Origin: an uncultured Prevotella sp.
Lineage (GTDB): Bacteria; Bacteroidota; Bacteroidia; Bacteroidales; Bacteroidaceae
Direction: 5' to 3'
DNA length: 46,708 nt
NCBI GenBank assembly: GCA_946183415.1
Contig: CAMHAM010000019.1
Coordinates: forward strand, 1-46,708
Part shown: piece by piece, positions 41,713 through 46,708 of the stretch
Position numbering within the stretch: position 1 is the stretch's first letter
Layout of the letters: every line of letters starts with the position of its first letter
The notes under the pieces: model-generated
The model's input: the letters and a program-made list of their open reading frames with translations, nothing else
Database searches by the model: none
Told to the model about the DNA's origin: nothing
Translations under genes and position numbers: made by a program

Positions 41713-43077
41713 CTATATGTGATATCCAGCGGAACGGTGTACCTGCTGGCTTTCATTCAATGACTGTGCTTCTGCCTCGTAATTCATGGCCGACATGGCC
41801 ATCAGTGTCTCTGCAGACAACGGTCTTCCTTGATCGATCTGCCGACTGTCAGCATGCGCTGGCTGTTTCGGTTCCGACTGTGCAACTTCTTGAGCGTCAC
41901 CGCCGGACATGACAGAGGCAAACTGGCTGAGCTGACTCATGAAATTCTGACTGTCGAAATTCCGGATCATCTGCTGGAGATCTTGTTTCTGCCCGACGGA
42001 AGGACTCTTTTCCTGTCCGTTCTGGGCGATAGTGTTGAGGAAGTACGTGGCCTCCCTGGTATTCCAGTACTCAAAGATACGGCTGTCAGGATGCCTTTGC
42101 CGGAACTGCTCGACATGCTCAGGCTTCAACGGCTCATTGCTGAAGGGGTTCCAGATTCCCTCATGCAGCATGATCATGCGGGCGGCATGGACATCTGCAG
42201 CACGCTCATAGCCTGTGTTGTCGTGCTGTAGCCTAGCATCGACATAAGTGCGTTCCGCAAGCCGTTCCGGTGTCTTGGCAGAAATACGTTCGACATATTT
42301 GTCATAGTCATACTTTGAAATGACCCCATTCTCATGGAGGCCTTTTATATACATCAGTTCCATGTTTGTATACCATTTAACGACCTCCATTCTGTCCGGG
42401 TTACTCTCATTGATCCTGTCATATGGACTGCCGGGTTTTCCGTAACTATTCGACGGCTCCAGCGATTCCCCTTCCCCTTGGTGGTAAATGCCAGGATTCA
42501 CAGCGTCCGGGGCAGTACTGTTGTATATATGATGGGCTATCTCATGGTTGGTGACTCCCAGGGCCTTCGTCTGGTTGACATAATGCTCATATCCGTCAGG
42601 AATACGGACGGCAGTTCTATCAGTGTCTGACAGATCAATCCCCGTATGGCTCTTTTTTATATCATCAATCACTTCAAAAGTGATATCATTGTAGGCGAAG
42701 CGGCCCCGCTGGATAACGGCATTATATGTCTCTGCATCCTCTTCTGTCATTTCCGAAGCACCGCTGACATATCCCAATGACTGTGCTTCCCTGTCCTCAA
42801 AGACCGGAGAACGGAAATATGCCAGCCCCAAGATAATATCTGCCTGCACCTTCGGCGAGAACTCCTGAAGGTTGAACATCTCCGCACCGCGTTCAAGATC
42901 TGAACCCAGAAGCTTGGCATCATCGATGGGCTGGCCGTCCATCTTCATGCTGGAGATTCGGGCAACGATATCATCAAGGTACTGCTCTTTATTCTGCAGT
43001 TCCCTGACCCTAGCCATTATTTCAGGATCAAATACCAGAGGTTGTGTTTTTTGTTTCTCGTCGTCCTTGTTTTGCAT
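41713..43077 (-). CDS. Putative HExxH metallopeptidase on the mobile element
   Basis: 454 residues without a signal peptide. It has H178-E179-I-A-H182 (NHEIAHHIY), the zincin motif. GYERAADVHAARMIM (E291, D295, H297) provides a likely third ligand, as in gluzincin-like folds. The N-terminus is charged and helical; the C-terminal 110 residues are Gln/Ser-rich and end QQVHRSAGYHI. The gene sits between HNH and hypothetical genes of the mobilisation region. A role in cleaving a conjugation, defence or host protein is inference only. Confidence 0.6.
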   Translation of the reverse strand: MQNKDDEKQKTQPLVFDPEIMARVRELQNKEQYLDDIVARISSMKMDGQPIDDAKLLGSDLERGAEMFNLQEFSPKVQADIILGLAYFRSPVFEDREAQSLGYVSGASEMTEEDAETYNAVIQRGRFAYNDITFEVIDDIKKSHTGIDLSDTDRTAVRIPDGYEHYVNQTKALGVTNHEIAHHIYNSTAPDAVNPGIYHQGEGESLEPSNSYGKPGSPYDRINESNPDRMEVVKWYTNMELMYIKGLHENGVISKYDYDKYVERISAKTPERLAERTYVDARLQHDNTGYERAADVHAARMIMLHEGIWNPFSNEPLKPEHVEQFRQRHPDSRIFEYWNTREATYFLNTIAQNGQEKSPSVGQKQDLQQMIRNFDSQNFMSQLSQFASVMSGGDAQEVAQSEPKQPAHADSRQIDQGRPLSAETLMAMSAMNYEAEAQSLNESQQVHRSAGYHI

Positions 43078-43146: not shown

Positions 43147-43464
43147 TCAATCCACAAAATCTCCCGTCTCAAAATAGAATTTCTTCCTGGCCATGGCAGC
43201 AACCATGTTGTCATACGTGGCCAGCTCCGACGGACGCAGACTGTCCCAGAAGAACCGCAGGCGGAACGTCTCCAAACTGTCTGAGGCCTTCATTGTGTTG
43301 CATCTGGCACACGACGGCATAAGGTTCTCGATATTGTTGCCGCCGCCCTTGCTCTGAGGAACAACATGATCGACTGTCATGTTATTCCGCTTCATATGCT
43401 CGCCGCAGTATGCACAATGGCCGTTGTACCTGGCATAGATGGCCTGTCGCTTTCCTACAGTCAT
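43147..43464 (-). CDS. HNH endonuclease domain protein
   Basis: 105 residues: CAYC (C17, C20), VDHVVPQSKGG (D32, H33), NIENLMPSC (N47, C52) and ARCN (C55, N56) make a complete zinc-stabilised HNH site. It is a small stand-alone nuclease of the McrA-like type. It lies 69 nt upstream of the HExxH gene on the same strand. A TACCTTTG -7 box (minus, 43503-43510) precedes it, so it has its own promoter downstream of the large RNA terminator. Confidence 0.85.
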   Translation of the reverse strand: MTVGKRQAIYARYNGHCAYCGEHMKRNNMTVDHVVPQSKGGGNNIENLMPSCARCNTMKASDSLETFRLRFFWDSLRPSELATYDNMVAAMARKKFYFETGDFVD

Positions 43465-43502
43465 ATCATATTCTTATTTCTATATTCTCCTGTTTATATC
43501 GA

Positions 43503-43510
43503 CAAAGGTA
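43503..43510 (-). promoter_or_regulatory. -7 box of the HNH gene
   Basis: TACCTTTG on the minus strand, 39 nt before the HNH start; the -33 region is weak. Confidence 0.5.
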
Positions 43511-43583
43511 TGATATAATCCTGGAGTTAATCCCTTGAGGAAATAAAATCTCTTGCTTTAACATAAACAAGACGATTTTGAAC

Positions 43584-43622
43584 AAAAAAAGAGCCGCCGC
43601 CGTCCGAAGATGGCAGCAGCTC
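43584..43622 (-). terminator. UUCG-loop intrinsic terminator of the large RNA
   Basis: GAGCTGCTGCCATC and GACGGCGGCGGCTC (minus strand) form a 14-bp stem with G-U pairs closed by TTCG, followed by seven T. One of the strongest terminators in the window. Confidence 0.9.
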
Positions 43623-44468
43623 TTGCCTCCTGTTACACCACCCGGCACTAATCGCCGGAGCATCAGCAAGGCTATGGGTGTCCTCTGGAGCAAACTTGCA
43701 CCTGGGGACAGATGAAGGCCGTTTTTCCAGTCATTATCGGCTTTCGCCTCAGACCCACCCAGACGTGCTATTGATGCACCCGGATTCACCTATTCCGCAC
43801 CTTCACCAATGGGGCACTTCCGGACGTTACCCCATGCCATTTGTCAAAGAAGGGAGGACACGACCATACATCCCATGTGCATGCAGTAGTATCCTCCCGA
43901 GGAAACCCAAGATCGACACCAGCACAATTCCGGTGAGGAGTACATGGCGTTTCCAAAAATGCTGCACTCCTGTCTGAGTTGTCTTCACTGGAAGAACCCG
44001 GATGCAAGGAACTACTCCAGCCGGCAGTGTGCAGCCATCAGGGACTATGACACCCTCCCTGAGAGGTAAGAAGCAATCTCCTATGTCCGACTACGGACAC
44101 TCTGACGGCAGGTACGCTCCCCATGGGGAACACCTCCTCCGTTATCGACGGCGAACCGTCTCACGCGCCCAGAGCGTTGCTTCTCTGAAAATGGAGAGCC
44201 GTTTTTCCAGCCGTTATCGGGAAGGGTAACAAACCCAGCGACAGACGTGCCAGTGAATCACCCGGATTCGCCTATATCCGCACTCTCCAGTAGTAAAGAG
44301 TTGCCTTCCACCCATTATCGAAAGTTCACTTTCTCAGGGATGCCCAGCCGTACTTTCGCACCCGGAACTCCATCCGCAACTCTTTTGAAAATGGGGTTTC
44401 GATCTCTGATCGCTTTCACCAAGCGTAGCGACTGAAAGAACCGCTATAGATCGCATTCCCCAAGAAGT

Positions 44469-44559
44469 AAAGAGAACTCGCCCGTCGGCTCTGATAGGCA
44501 CTTAGCCGACCGGCATAGAGCCGTGCCGGACCTCTTTCCTACGCAGGGCGATTCTCTTT
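44469..44559 (-). other. Three-way junction domain in the large RNA
   Basis: Outer helix AAAGAGAACTCGCCC with GGGCGATTCTCTTT; inner hairpins TCGGCT/AGCCGA (44485-44509) and CCGGCA/TGCCGG (44510-44529), both perfect. Confidence 0.7.
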
Positions 44560-45726
44560 TAGGATCCTGGCACCGCGGTACCGGGCGAGTAATCGCCTTT
44601 CAAAGCCACTGCCATGCCAGGAAAACACTCTATTTGACAACAGGATCCCATCTGGGGACACGCCATGGCGCACGTATCACCAATAGAGTGTAGAAGAACC
44701 TGGCACCGCTCGCTCATGGGCCGGACAACATGAGGTGGCCGTAACCGCCTCCCGCAACTCCCAAGGCACACAGACCGACATGCCAGGCAGGAATTGAAGA
44801 TCAAAGGAACAAGGCTCAAAAGACCCCTTGCGGGGCGACACTGACGAATCAGCAGGAGCAACCAATGATCTCAATTCCTTTAGAAGAACCTGGCACCGCT
44901 ACGCTCATGGGCCGGTCATACTGAGGCCGCCGTAACCGCCTCCCGCTTCTCCCATGGCTCAAGTGCCGACATGCCAGGCTGGGACACCGCGGAAACTCAG
45001 TTTGCATACAAACCTTATTAGGGGTTCAGTACAAAGAGGCATACACCACTAACATGTCCCGTATTTCAGAAACCTGGCACCCAACGACGGGATGCCATCA
45101 GGCGACACGTCTTTCGACGCATGCATTGCCAGTGCCAGGCCGAGTTTCTTGATACTCCGATGGCAGCGAGTTTTATTCGATCAGTCAACGTTGGCCAGAA
45201 TGTATCTGACACGAAGGAGCGTCTATCAAGAATCTCTTTTAGGTATGAAGGGCAATCTCCTCAATCCGACTACGGAAGCTCTGTCAGCAGCCTCACTTGT
45301 CGCGCTTCCGGTGACAAGCAGCCCTCTCCAGCGTACAGACCGTACCTATGGTGACAATAGCGTTACCCTTCATATTCAGAAGATGGATGCCAGTGGTGGC
45401 GCGAACTCACCACACAGTTCTGGCCACTGATCCGATATGCCCCACTATTCCTAACTACGCCAGCGGAACGGATATACGCTACGGCAGCACCCATCTATAA
45501 TATAAGACGGATGTCACCCTCCAAGGTGGCCGATGCCCGGCCGACCAGCCATCCAATGTGACTGCAGTAGGCCGTCCCCATGTCTCTACGCCCGAAGCGT
45601 TCTCCAAGGCAGCGACACCCATCTATATTTTCCACTATTTCAAAGATCGCTCTATTTCATCATCAATTTCCGCTCGACCCGCAAGGGGCGCTTTCATAAA
45701 GCGAAGCGACTGAAAGAAAGATCGCT

Positions 45727-45762
45727 CTATTTTGCTATGTAAGCATTTTTCGTTTCGGCCAT
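45727..45762 (-). CDS. Eleven-codon ORF with a strong Shine-Dalgarno
   Basis: Encodes MAETKNAYIAK. AAGGAGG lies 7 nt before the ATG and overlaps the stop of the preceding gene. Strong Shine-Dalgarno sequences are unusual in Bacteroidetes. It could be a leader peptide at the 5' edge of the large RNA, or a chance match. Confidence 0.35.
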   Translation of the reverse strand: MAETKNAYIAK

Positions 45763-45774
45763 AGTCAATCCTCC

Positions 45775-46134
45775 TTATTGGTTCTCGATAGCCTGCACCA
45801 AGGCATCGACCATCGGGTTTTCTTCCGGACTGGTGATGTTCAGGGCCTCGCCCTCTGCAGCCTCGAAGGTAACGCTGGGTGCTGCACCGGCGGCATCAGC
45901 TTCTTTCAGATAGGCCACCACCTTGTCCTGATCCTTGAAGGAGGCTGCAAGTCCGAACATGATACACGTCATTACGTCAGTCGGATATCCTGCCTTCCGG
46001 ATATTCTGAAGTTTATCCTTCGTTGGCCTAAGTGTTATCGTATGGTACTTGATAACCATCTGGCCGCCTACCTCGTTCAGGAGGTCAAGCATTTCCATTT
46101 CATAGGGGTTTACTGTCTGTTTCTTCTTTGCCAT
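45775..46134 (-). CDS. Hypothetical protein (119 residues)
   Basis: MAKKKQTVNPYEMEMLDLLNEVGGQMVIKYHTITLRPTKDKLQNIRKAGYPTDVMTCIMFGLAASFKDQDKVVAYLKEADAAGAAPSV...: basic start, then helical and acidic C-terminal half. Not recognised. It follows the phosphoesterase by 16 nt, so it is in the same minus-strand operon, and lies immediately upstream of the large RNA. A function connected to that RNA is possible but only inferred from position. Confidence 0.6.
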   Translation of the reverse strand: MAKKKQTVNPYEMEMLDLLNEVGGQMVIKYHTITLRPTKDKLQNIRKAGYPTDVMTCIMFGLAASFKDQDKVVAYLKEADAAGAAPSVTFEAAEGEALNITSPEENPMVDALVQAIENQ

Positions 46135-46150: not shown

Positions 46151-46708
46151 TTATATCAATTCTTTCAGTTCCATGATTTCTAATATGTTGTACCTCACTC
46201 CATCTATTTCGCTATTCCAGGAGTAATGAAAATGCCCAATGAACCAGTGCTGCAGGGGATGGCCGTGCTCCTTCAGGAATGAATGAATGTCATCCATCAC
46301 CTTCCTCTCATGCTTGATGTCATCAAGGAGATCTTCATCCTTCACCAGCCAATTCTGGATAAGGATGGGTTGCACCTCCTGACAGAATGACGGTGCTGTG
46401 TGTGTGATGACCACATCGACGGCATGATCCTTGCTGATGGCCTCTAACTGTGCCTGGTCATATACAGGCCTTTCATCTGGCCAATAGACAAACGGAGTCA
46501 GTTTGCCGTCTCCTGTCTCTATACGATTCTCATACATTCTCCAGACTCTATCAATTGATATTGCACCACCAACGCAGAGGATGGTATGACCACAGGCTTT
46601 GATAACGGAGTAGTCCGGCACGGCCTTCCACCGCTCGTAGTTCACCTGCTGGCCGTCAAAGTACGCAGGGTTATCGTGGTTTCCACGAATGAACACTATC
46701 CAGTTGTT
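46151..46708 (-). CDS. Calcineurin-like metallophosphoesterase (5' end outside window)
   Basis: About 185 C-terminal residues; the frame runs off the right edge (NNWIVFIRGNHDN), so the start lies outside. GNHDN is metallophosphoesterase motif III, VVITHTAPSFC gives a metal-binding His, and FIGHFHYS is the GHxH motif. The N-terminal DxH and GD motifs must lie beyond the window. Such enzymes hydrolyse phosphomonoesters or nucleic acids; the substrate cannot be told. Upstream gene of the operon that leads into the large RNA. Confidence 0.85.
   Translation of the reverse strand, partial: NNWIVFIRGNHDNPAYFDGQQVNYERWKAVPDYSVIKACGHTILCVGGAISIDRVWRMYENRIETGDGKLTPFVYWPDERPVYDQAQLEAISKDHAVDVVITHTAPSFCQEVQPILIQNWLVKDEDLLDDIKHERKVMDDIHSFLKEHGHPLQHWFIGHFHYSWNSEIDGVRYNILEIMELKELI

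What the first reader, a model, noticed from the sequence alone, without database searches (positions are those of the whole stretch)
43584..45726. A 2.1-kb ornate structured RNA with no obvious protein, inside a mobilisable element
The region lacks credible ORFs but is full of complementary segments on the minus strand: repeated closed elements, multi-branch junctions, GNRA/UUCG loops and a very strong terminator. Several helices are perfect or nearly so over 10-15 bp. RNAs of this size and complexity are rare; GOLLD and ROOL (600-800 nt) are the closest known types and also live on mobile elements. This one seems about three times larger and modular. It follows a phosphoesterase and an unknown protein and precedes an HNH gene.
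Basis: partly seen in the sequence, partly recalled or inferred. Interest (0 to 1): 0.9.

Follow-up and report, generated by a model that had tools for sequence, protein, structure and literature searches.

The report
Giant modular RNA chain in Prevotella
One strand of this Prevotella-type DNA holds a 2.1-kb chain of about 25 modules predicted to fold as RNA, most of them found again in other genomes and one also found alone inside giant phage-type genes, so it is predicted to be a very long noncoding RNA whose modules likely each bind a protein.

Summary
The minus strand of 45,760-43,584 has no detectable protein, no Rfam match at gathering score, and about 25 closed modules ending in a strong predicted terminator. 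Helices covary: 15 of 26 pairs of module D have two-sided changes (0 of 500 shuffles). Folding energy alone is not unusual; the evidence is covariation and long helices. Nine of 11 chain starts carry a boxA-like motif resembling 16S rRNA leaders of the genus, suggesting rRNA-type antitermination. Single modules also occur as apparent small RNAs behind Bacteroidetes promoter motifs. Module 12 lies antisense inside giant open frames (982-4205 aa) in 11 of 11 loci outside chains (some near-duplicates); two giant frames tested, one with M12 and one with M11, carry phage polyvalent-protein domains. Most likely this is one boxA-protected transcript of many independent, probably protein-binding RNA modules. 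Transcription, processing and function are untested. It is not GOLLD or ROOL.

The parts
45717..45760 (-). 5' block of the RNA, 100% identical over 44 nt to the G119 relative; starts with a short ATG-TAG frame in the window
45638..45650 (-). boxA-like signal GCGATCTTTGAAA near the start of the chain (predicted antitermination site)
   Evidence: TCTTTGA at 9 of 11 chain starts and in 3 of 3 readable 16S rRNA leaders
45499..45629 (-). module M1
   Evidence: closed fold; 99% identical in L024 only
45380..45497 (-). module M2
   Evidence: closed fold; 99% identical in L024 only
45244..45374 (-). module M3, closed by a 12-bp helix; absent from the matching site in L024
   Evidence: only a partial repeat of M16 in the same RNA
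45144..45234 (-). module M4
   Evidence: relatives in L049, L066, L024; covariation weak, 45/200
45072..45140 (-). module M5, CCUGGCA-closed
   Evidence: 100% in L024 only
44978..45071 (-). module M6
   Evidence: 98% in L066
44887..44977 (-). module M7 (type B inside a CCUGGCA clamp)
   Evidence: 13 relatives, one of them M9 of this RNA; closing helix is GGGGAA/UUCCCC in L024, L050, L052; two-sided changes 12/200 shuffles
44789..44882 (-). module M8
   Evidence: 6 of 29 pairs with two-sided changes, 0/200 shuffles
44697..44788 (-). module M9 (type B)
   Evidence: 7 of 19 pairs with two-sided changes, 0/200 shuffles
44623..44693 (-). module M10, closed by a 10-bp helix; no relative found
44564..44623 (-). 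module M11; also stands alone after a promoter motif in L030
   Evidence: 6 of 18 pairs with two-sided changes, 0/200
44468..44560 (-). module M12; also an antisense unit inside giant phage-type frames
   Evidence: 8 of 24 pairs with two-sided changes, 3/200
44391..44464 (-). module M13; carries a copy of a dispersed Prevotella hairpin
   Evidence: only partial relatives
44295..44384 (-). module M14 (type D')
   Evidence: R1 match, E 4.7e-7; 5 of 22 pairs, 3/200
44191..44292 (-). module M15 (type D)
   Evidence: R1 match, one of the copies the model was built from
44067..44187 (-). module M16
   Evidence: 88% in L024 only
44039..44066 (-). module M17, short hairpin
   Evidence: 92% in L024 only
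43958..44037 (-). module M18 (type E)
   Evidence: relatives over at least half its length in L025, L049, L051, L052, L066, L071, partial in L024, L026, L050; 5 of 21 pairs, 5/200
43901..43956 (-). module M19
   Evidence: 91% in L024 only
43851..43900 (-). module M20
   Evidence: three relatives in L024 and one in this RNA; 6 of 17 pairs, 3/200
43806..43847 (-). module M21
   Evidence: 97% in L024; partial in L074
43710..43806 (-). module M22 (type D)
   Evidence: R1 match, one of the copies the model was built from; 8 of 26 pairs, 1/200
43678..43709 (-). module M23, short hairpin
   Evidence: 96% in L024 only
43625..43678 (-). module M24 (type F)
   Evidence: 13 relatives; motif in 8 stretches of genome contigs; two-sided changes not beyond shuffles (36/200)
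43586..43625 (-). module M25: 13-bp UUCG hairpin and U tract, predicted intrinsic terminator
   Evidence: 100% in L024, partial in L074
45775..46134 (-). 119-aa protein gene directly upstream, same strand; no Pfam or PHROG family
46151..46708 (-). metallophosphoesterase gene, cut by the contig end
   Evidence: PF00149 E 5.1e-4 (21.0 bits, just under its cut-off 21.5), phrog_1649
43147..43464 (-). HNH endonuclease gene downstream
   Evidence: PF01844 E 4.6e-15

Best explanation
The minus strand of 45,760-43,584 carries a chain of about 25 modules predicted to fold as closed RNA units, many with helices that covary across Prevotella relatives, that is predicted to be one long noncoding transcript, likely protected from early termination by a boxA signal, whose modules would each work as a separate protein-binding (decoy or inhibitor) small RNA of the mobile element. 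Shown by calls: the covariation of the modules that could be tested, their gain, loss and swapping between genomes, the mostly kept order, the lack of coding, the boxA-like match to 16S rRNA leaders, and module copies outside chains behind Bacteroidetes-type promoter motifs. Inferred: transcription as one RNA from a promoter beyond the contig end (no TAnnTTTG lies in the 1.1 kb upstream), NusB/NusE recruitment, possible cutting in the linkers, and protein binding. The protein-binding step rests on conserved junction and loop cores with swapped closing helices, which is what a structure read by a partner, not by base pairing, would show.
For: Noncoding. Module parse. Of 25 modules, 22 have a relative covering at least half their length in another locus (10 of these only in G119), M3 and M13 only partial ones, M10 none (M20 in G119). 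Covariation: module D, 15 of 26 pairs two-sided, 0/500 shuffles; M12 copies outside chains, 8 of 29 pairs, 0/500; of 12 modules tested, M8, M9, M11, M15 0/200, M22 1/200, M12, M14, M20 3/200, M18 5/200. Order mostly kept in L024, L066, L049. Strand: sense more stable in 18 of 22 modules; boxA, terminator and flanking genes agree. boxA: 9 of 11 chain starts; L027 GAGTTCTTTGAAAG is identical to the 16S leader motif of G117. Stand-alone units: L030, L053, L054, L068 and others; M12 antisense in 11 of 11 loci outside chains, each with TAnnTTTG 29-65 nt upstream of the motif, background 0.032 per 70 nt. L066 opens, at the edge of the stretch held, with a TACCTTTGC motif and its chain.
Against: No transcript data. 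Folding energy is not unusual. L065 has module D without a boxA motif in the stretch searched. M7, M24 and M4 do not stand out from shuffles (12/200, 36/200, 45/200), and shuffles do not correct for relatedness. modules are not independent (M7 with M9, M14 with M15 and M22). The kept order would also fit one integrated fold. No partner protein is constant: a metallophosphoesterase adjoins in the window and L049 and, by reading, L074. The antisense place of M12 in long genes could mean cis regulation of that gene. Several M12 loci are near-duplicates (L097 and L101 of L054, L102 of L096).
Confidence: 0.5

Rival explanations
1. One integrated giant scaffold RNA that folds and perhaps self-assembles as a whole, as GOLLD and ROOL do, with modules as expandable peripheral domains.
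For: Mostly kept module order in L024, L066 and L049; D-E-F order shared by L066 and G217 at 85% identity; mobile-element setting; ROOL and GOLLD form RNA cages (PMC12286853, start of abstract and passages).
Against: Modules are predicted closed units, some of which occur alone behind promoter motifs, and are lost or replaced without disturbing their neighbours; chains range from about 0.5 to 2.5 kb.
Confidence: 0.25
2. A structured 3' region of an mRNA that sets stability or expression of the upstream genes.
For: Chains follow small ORFs on the same strand (window, L049, L051; L074 by reading).
Against: No ORF of 30 aa or more starts between 6400 and the chain in L050; L066 opens with a promoter motif; no DNA match upstream of the RNA between the window and G119 while the RNA is kept.
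Confidence: 0.15
3. A DNA-level array of hairpin cassettes (single-strand recombination or insertion elements), not a functional RNA.
For: Modules appear and vanish cleanly (M3 is absent from L024) and one hairpin is a dispersed repeat.
Against: One strand is more stable in 18 of 22 modules; promoter motifs, boxA and U tracts all point the same way; modules have unlike cores. A shared recombination site was not systematically searched for.
Confidence: 0.06
4. A decayed or frameshifted protein gene.
For: Only that the flanks are coding.
Against: No codon-position bias, 13 of 16 indels break frame, no Pfam match of the four ORFs; two-sided compensatory changes.
Confidence: 0.01

Closest known systems
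GOLLD and ROOL RNAs
   Same: Large, ornate, noncoding, on phages and prophages; function unknown (PMC12286853, passages)
   Different: No match to these models here; 2.1 kb against 659 nt (ROOL env-120) and over 800 nt (many GOLLDs); built of modules some of which also occur alone
boxA-led noncoding transcripts (rRNA operons, CRISPR arrays)
   Same: boxA-like motif at the head of a long untranslated RNA, resembling the 16S leader of the genus; boxA reported upstream of CRISPR arrays (PMC7862264, passages)
   Different: Modules are unlike each other and no CRISPR-type regular repeat array is present
Racr RNA anti-CRISPRs
   Same: Small noncoding RNA units in viral genomes that act as mimics of a host RNA (PMC10651486, start of abstract)
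   Different: Resemblance to a CRISPR repeat was not tested; modules are diverse; a shared mechanism is only inferred
Structured phage RNA sensed by CBASS cyclases (name cabRNA recalled)
   Same: A structured RNA transcribed from within phage genes that meets a host protein (PMC10686824, start of abstract)
   Different: There the RNA is sensed by defence; here M12 lies antisense in giant genes and nothing about sensing was tested
Type III toxin-antitoxin RNAs (recalled)
   Same: Concatenated structured RNA units that bind a protein
   Different: No near-identical tandem units; no toxin family among the neighbouring proteins searched

Membership tests
GOLLD / ROOL | Match to the Rfam covariance model | tested here: not met
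   No match at gathering score in the window but one tRNA; with E up to 5 in 43400-45900 four weak matches (RUF6-5, mir-191, lysM-Actino, SCARNA6), far below their gathering scores, none of them GOLLD or ROOL
GOLLD / ROOL | Carried by phage or prophage, often near tRNA genes | tested here: inconclusive
   Relaxase on the contig; two tRNAs about 9-12 kb away; element borders unmapped
GOLLD / ROOL | Homo-oligomeric RNA cage | not testable with these tools
   Needs cryo-EM
boxA-antiterminated transcript | boxA sequence like that of the rRNA operons of the genus | tested here: met
   TCTTTGA at 9 of 11 chain starts; 3 of 3 readable 16S leaders (of 6 loci given). A nine-letter pattern for it occurs 12 times on both strands of the window
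boxA-antiterminated transcript | NusB/NusE binding and read-through | not testable with these tools
   Needs transcription assays
CRISPR array | Regularly spaced near-identical direct repeats | tested here: not met
   Eleven repeat families of 2-4 copies, mostly imperfect, irregularly spaced
Type III antitoxin | Near-identical tandem pseudoknot repeats beside a ToxN-like toxin | tested here: not met
   Repeats not of that kind; neighbouring proteins searched match no toxin family in Pfam; the padloc library was not used
Stand-alone promoter-driven small RNA | Bacteroidetes TAnnTTTG motif before the module and a T tract after it | tested here: met
   In L053, 4 of 4 TAnnTTTGC sites on the module strand have a closed stem and T-rich tail, background 0.115; in L030 1 of 3, background 0.062; M12 11 of 11 with the motif, background 0.032; consensus from PMC7366714 (passage)
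Stand-alone promoter-driven small RNA | A transcript | not testable with these tools
   No RNA-seq held

The most novel reading that the evidence does not exclude
Prevotella mobile elements build toolbox RNAs: long boxA-protected chains that collect small structured RNAs from phages and other elements, one bead per target, so that a single transcript disarms many host or rival proteins at once. The 2.1-kb chain of this window, with its 25 beads, would be an extreme case.
Probability: 0.2. Interest if true: 0.95.

Novelty: categorically new. Interest (0 to 1): 0.86.

Why it matters
A noncoding RNA of over 2 kb made of interchangeable modules, some of which also occur as apparent small RNAs inside giant phage-type genes, has no counterpart among the Rfam families searched or in the papers listed here. 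It would link phage polyvalent-protein genes, mobile elements and a new class of modular RNA, and it offers small covarying units (about 50-130 nt) ready for pull-downs and structure work. The caveat: large ornate RNAs on mobile elements are already known as a phenomenon; what is new is the family and its build.

Tried and rejected
Folding energy as proof: 200-nt window z-scores were not unusual, so I relied on covariation and helix counts. Search by the neighbouring 119-aa protein in viral contigs found no relative. blastn in phages and plasmids found nothing for the whole RNA or for M12. Exact-pattern scans of viral contigs for modules E and D found none. The DNA hit in L055 is a 34-nt match inside a 490-codon open frame; I saw no module around it and dropped it. 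My notebook says boxA at 9 of 9 chain starts; counted over all 11 stretches given to it is 9 of 11. Type B modules aligned alone gave only 9 consensus pairs. One search lists many promoter-plus-stem units; only those named here resemble modules, the rest may be chance. One search tested 12 of 25 modules; the other 13 were left out, most having only one relative or none.

Limits: E-values of model R1 are rough (short calibration). The genome search scores only candidates of a first look, so genome counts are lower bounds; own genome included they are: DNA of the whole RNA 27 of 199 (mostly short dispersed repeats), of its middle part 10 of 398, R1 5 of 199 and 8 of 14 chosen genomes, M12 pattern 4 of 398. 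A4 is fitted to the model structure, which favours it; A5 is a gap-free MAFFT alignment.

Full report
What is there. The window is the whole of contig C19 of a genome in the same genus (label g1) as its relatives. The closest relative by this RNA, G119, has a contig of 75,473 bases; a contig of that length, of Prevotella sp. MAG RGIG10051 from yak rumen, carries the F motif at the matching place, so I take it to be that genome. Between the 119-aa gene (45,775-46,134) and the HNH gene (43,147-43,464) lie 2.3 kb without a conserved frame. The four ORFs of at least 80 aa there match no Pfam family. In the 7 strong aligned pieces with G119, substitutions are spread evenly over codon positions and 13 of 16 indels break frame. 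The sequence shared with G119 begins at 45,760 and stops at 43,584, just after the terminator, and no DNA match lies upstream of it; this sets the ends of the RNA better than the ORF gaps do. Elsewhere the two contigs share other pieces, among them a 454-aa protein at 41% identity.

The chain. Local folding and inspection divide the minus strand into 25 closed modules, M1-M25, with mostly short linkers and a final 13-bp UUCG terminator hairpin; the division is mine and some modules may nest. Twenty-two of 25 have a relative over at least half their length in another locus (10 of these only in G119), M3 and M13 only partial ones, M10 none. The G119 chain lacks M3 and holds sequence of its own; L066 (Bacteroidales MAG RUG14617) has a 1.2-kb chain that opens, at the edge of the stretch held, with a TACCTTTGC motif. 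Order is mostly the same in the window, L024, L066 and L049; exceptions are M7, M11, M22 and M24 in L024 and M7 and M22 in L066. The same interior appears with different closing helices: type B sits in CCUGGCA/UGCCAGG in the window and in GGGGAA/UUCCCC in L024, L050 and L052.

Is it more than chance? Folding energy says no: 200-nt windows give a mean z of -0.28 on the minus strand, against -0.63 elsewhere. Long helices say yes against shuffles: 15 of at least 9 bp, shuffles 2.8 +/- 1.8, maximum 8 of 60; but other stretches of the window reach 12, and at 8 and 10 bp the highest other stretches (28, 9) exceed the region (23, 6). Covariation is the main evidence. Module D was modelled from 7 copies (R1) and found 12 times in 15 sources; in 11 distinct rows, of 26 pairs 15 have two-sided changes, 94.5% of cells pair, and no shuffle of 500 reaches this, nor do partners slid by 1-3 columns. 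The shuffles keep no account of relatedness, so these are not probabilities. Of 12 modules tested, M8, M9, M11 and M15 exceed all 200 shuffles, M22 199, M12, M14 and M20 197, M18 195; M7 (12/200), M24 (36/200) and M4 (45/200) do not stand out. The sense strand is more stable in 18 of 22 modules; M4, M11, M17 and M18 go the other way.

How it would be made. No TAnnTTTG lies on the minus strand from 45,601 to the contig end or inside the RNA, so it is probably transcribed with the genes upstream, from a promoter beyond the contig. At 9 of 11 chain starts stands TCTTTGA in a context such as GCGATCTTTGAAA or CGCTCTTTGAAA, in L049 and L051 directly after the stop codon of the gene upstream. Three of 3 readable 16S leaders of the genus have GNGTTCTTTGAAA, and the L027 motif is identical to that of G117 (the other three 16S loci were in the opposite orientation and could not be read). 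The two misses are L066, which has a promoter motif instead, and L065. [quoted passage not shown] Antitermination is therefore the likely way a 2-kb untranslated RNA escapes Rho; this is inferred.

Modules outside chains. M11 in L030, type A in L054 and M12 in L053 and L054 follow a Bacteroidetes promoter motif and lie antisense inside open frames of 2020-3667 aa that mostly run off the stretch held. Two of these frames were searched: L053 carries an inorganic pyrophosphatase domain, MuF_C and PBECR1 above their cut-offs, and ART-PolyVal and PBECR2 below them; L030 carries LPD38 and RadC. A 23-nt M12 motif hits 9 viral contigs and 4 of 398 genus genomes, the window's own included. In all 11 loci outside chains M12 lies antisense in an open frame of 982-4205 aa, with TAnnTTTG 29-65 nt upstream of the motif (11 of 11, background 0.032). 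Its covariation in 9 aligned copies (8 distinct) is clear: 8 of 29 pairs two-sided, 0 of 500 shuffles, though 18 pairs never vary. Coding on the other strand would not by itself produce paired changes at distant sites. No M12 relative was found in the named phage or plasmid collections.

Where it occurs. The F motif is in 8 stretches of genome contigs (84,980 species genomes), all titled Prevotella, Prevotellaceae or Bacteroidales; three titles name yak rumen, water-deer omasum and goat abomasum, and four others bear RUG names that I recall as rumen MAGs; it is in one viral contig. R1 hits 5 of 199 relatives, all in one of 80 genera. So the family is rare and, as far as these searches saw, confined to this group.

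What it does. I commit to a boxA-protected chain of independent RNA modules that bind proteins, most likely as decoys or inhibitors for the mobile element. The grounds are swappable closing helices around conserved cores, single-module units inside phage-type genes, and module gain and loss between genomes. Analogies are Racr RNA anti-CRISPRs and the structured phage RNA sensed by CBASS cyclases (starts of abstracts only). No partner, transcript or activity was shown. The chief rival is one integrated scaffold in the manner of ROOL or GOLLD, which form RNA cages (PMC12286853).

Novelty. At gathering score no Rfam family matches the RNA, and in the relatives scanned only tRNAs in L054 and one SAM-I/IV riboswitch in L049, away from the modules; permissive scans gave only weak, unrelated matches. 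L096-L105 were not scanned. The paper searches named in this report listed nothing like it. Large ornate RNAs on mobile DNA are known; a chain of modules that also stand alone is, to my knowledge, not.

Noticed in passing
L025 about 3900-3600 (-), L026 3500-3740 (+), L027 3860-4130 (+), L029 6010-5710 (-), L049 4470-4640 (+), L050 6640-6340 (-), L051 7430-7150 (-): A second recurrent structured leader (AAAAGGTGGC...GGTAACTGGCTAC, by reading) behind a Bacteroidetes promoter motif, ending in a terminator-like hairpin; no Rfam match at gathering score in these loci (L050 only). It may control read-through into small lipoprotein genes and chains.
   Followed up: partly
window 44411-44440 and 45689-45718: A hairpin of about 30 nt (CTTTCAGTCGC...GAAAGCG) that is dispersed in many genomes of the genus, present twice in the RNA.
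   Followed up: partly
L053 3811-3900 and 4404-4510, L068 5570 (-), L066 1259-1345, L074 2353 (-), L051 4898 (-): Further promoter-motif plus closed-stem plus T-tract units of other module types; possibly many more small RNAs of this kind.
   Followed up: partly
window 41713-43077 and L024 3867-5210: A protein without a Pfam match, 41% identical between the window and G119, with a HEIAH/HELAH stretch; a shared gene of the element.
   Followed up: partly
L049 4687-5535, L051 7099-6248, L074, L065: Small lipoprotein plus DUF1896-like gene directly upstream of several chains (DUF1896 E 1.9e-12 in L049; the others by reading).
   Followed up: partly
L024 12188-12288: The M24 module of G119 carries a stem-loop insert inside its hairpin loop.
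   Followed up: no
L049 723-838 (-): SAM-I/IV riboswitch match, 51.3 bits against a gathering score of 41.1.
   Followed up: no
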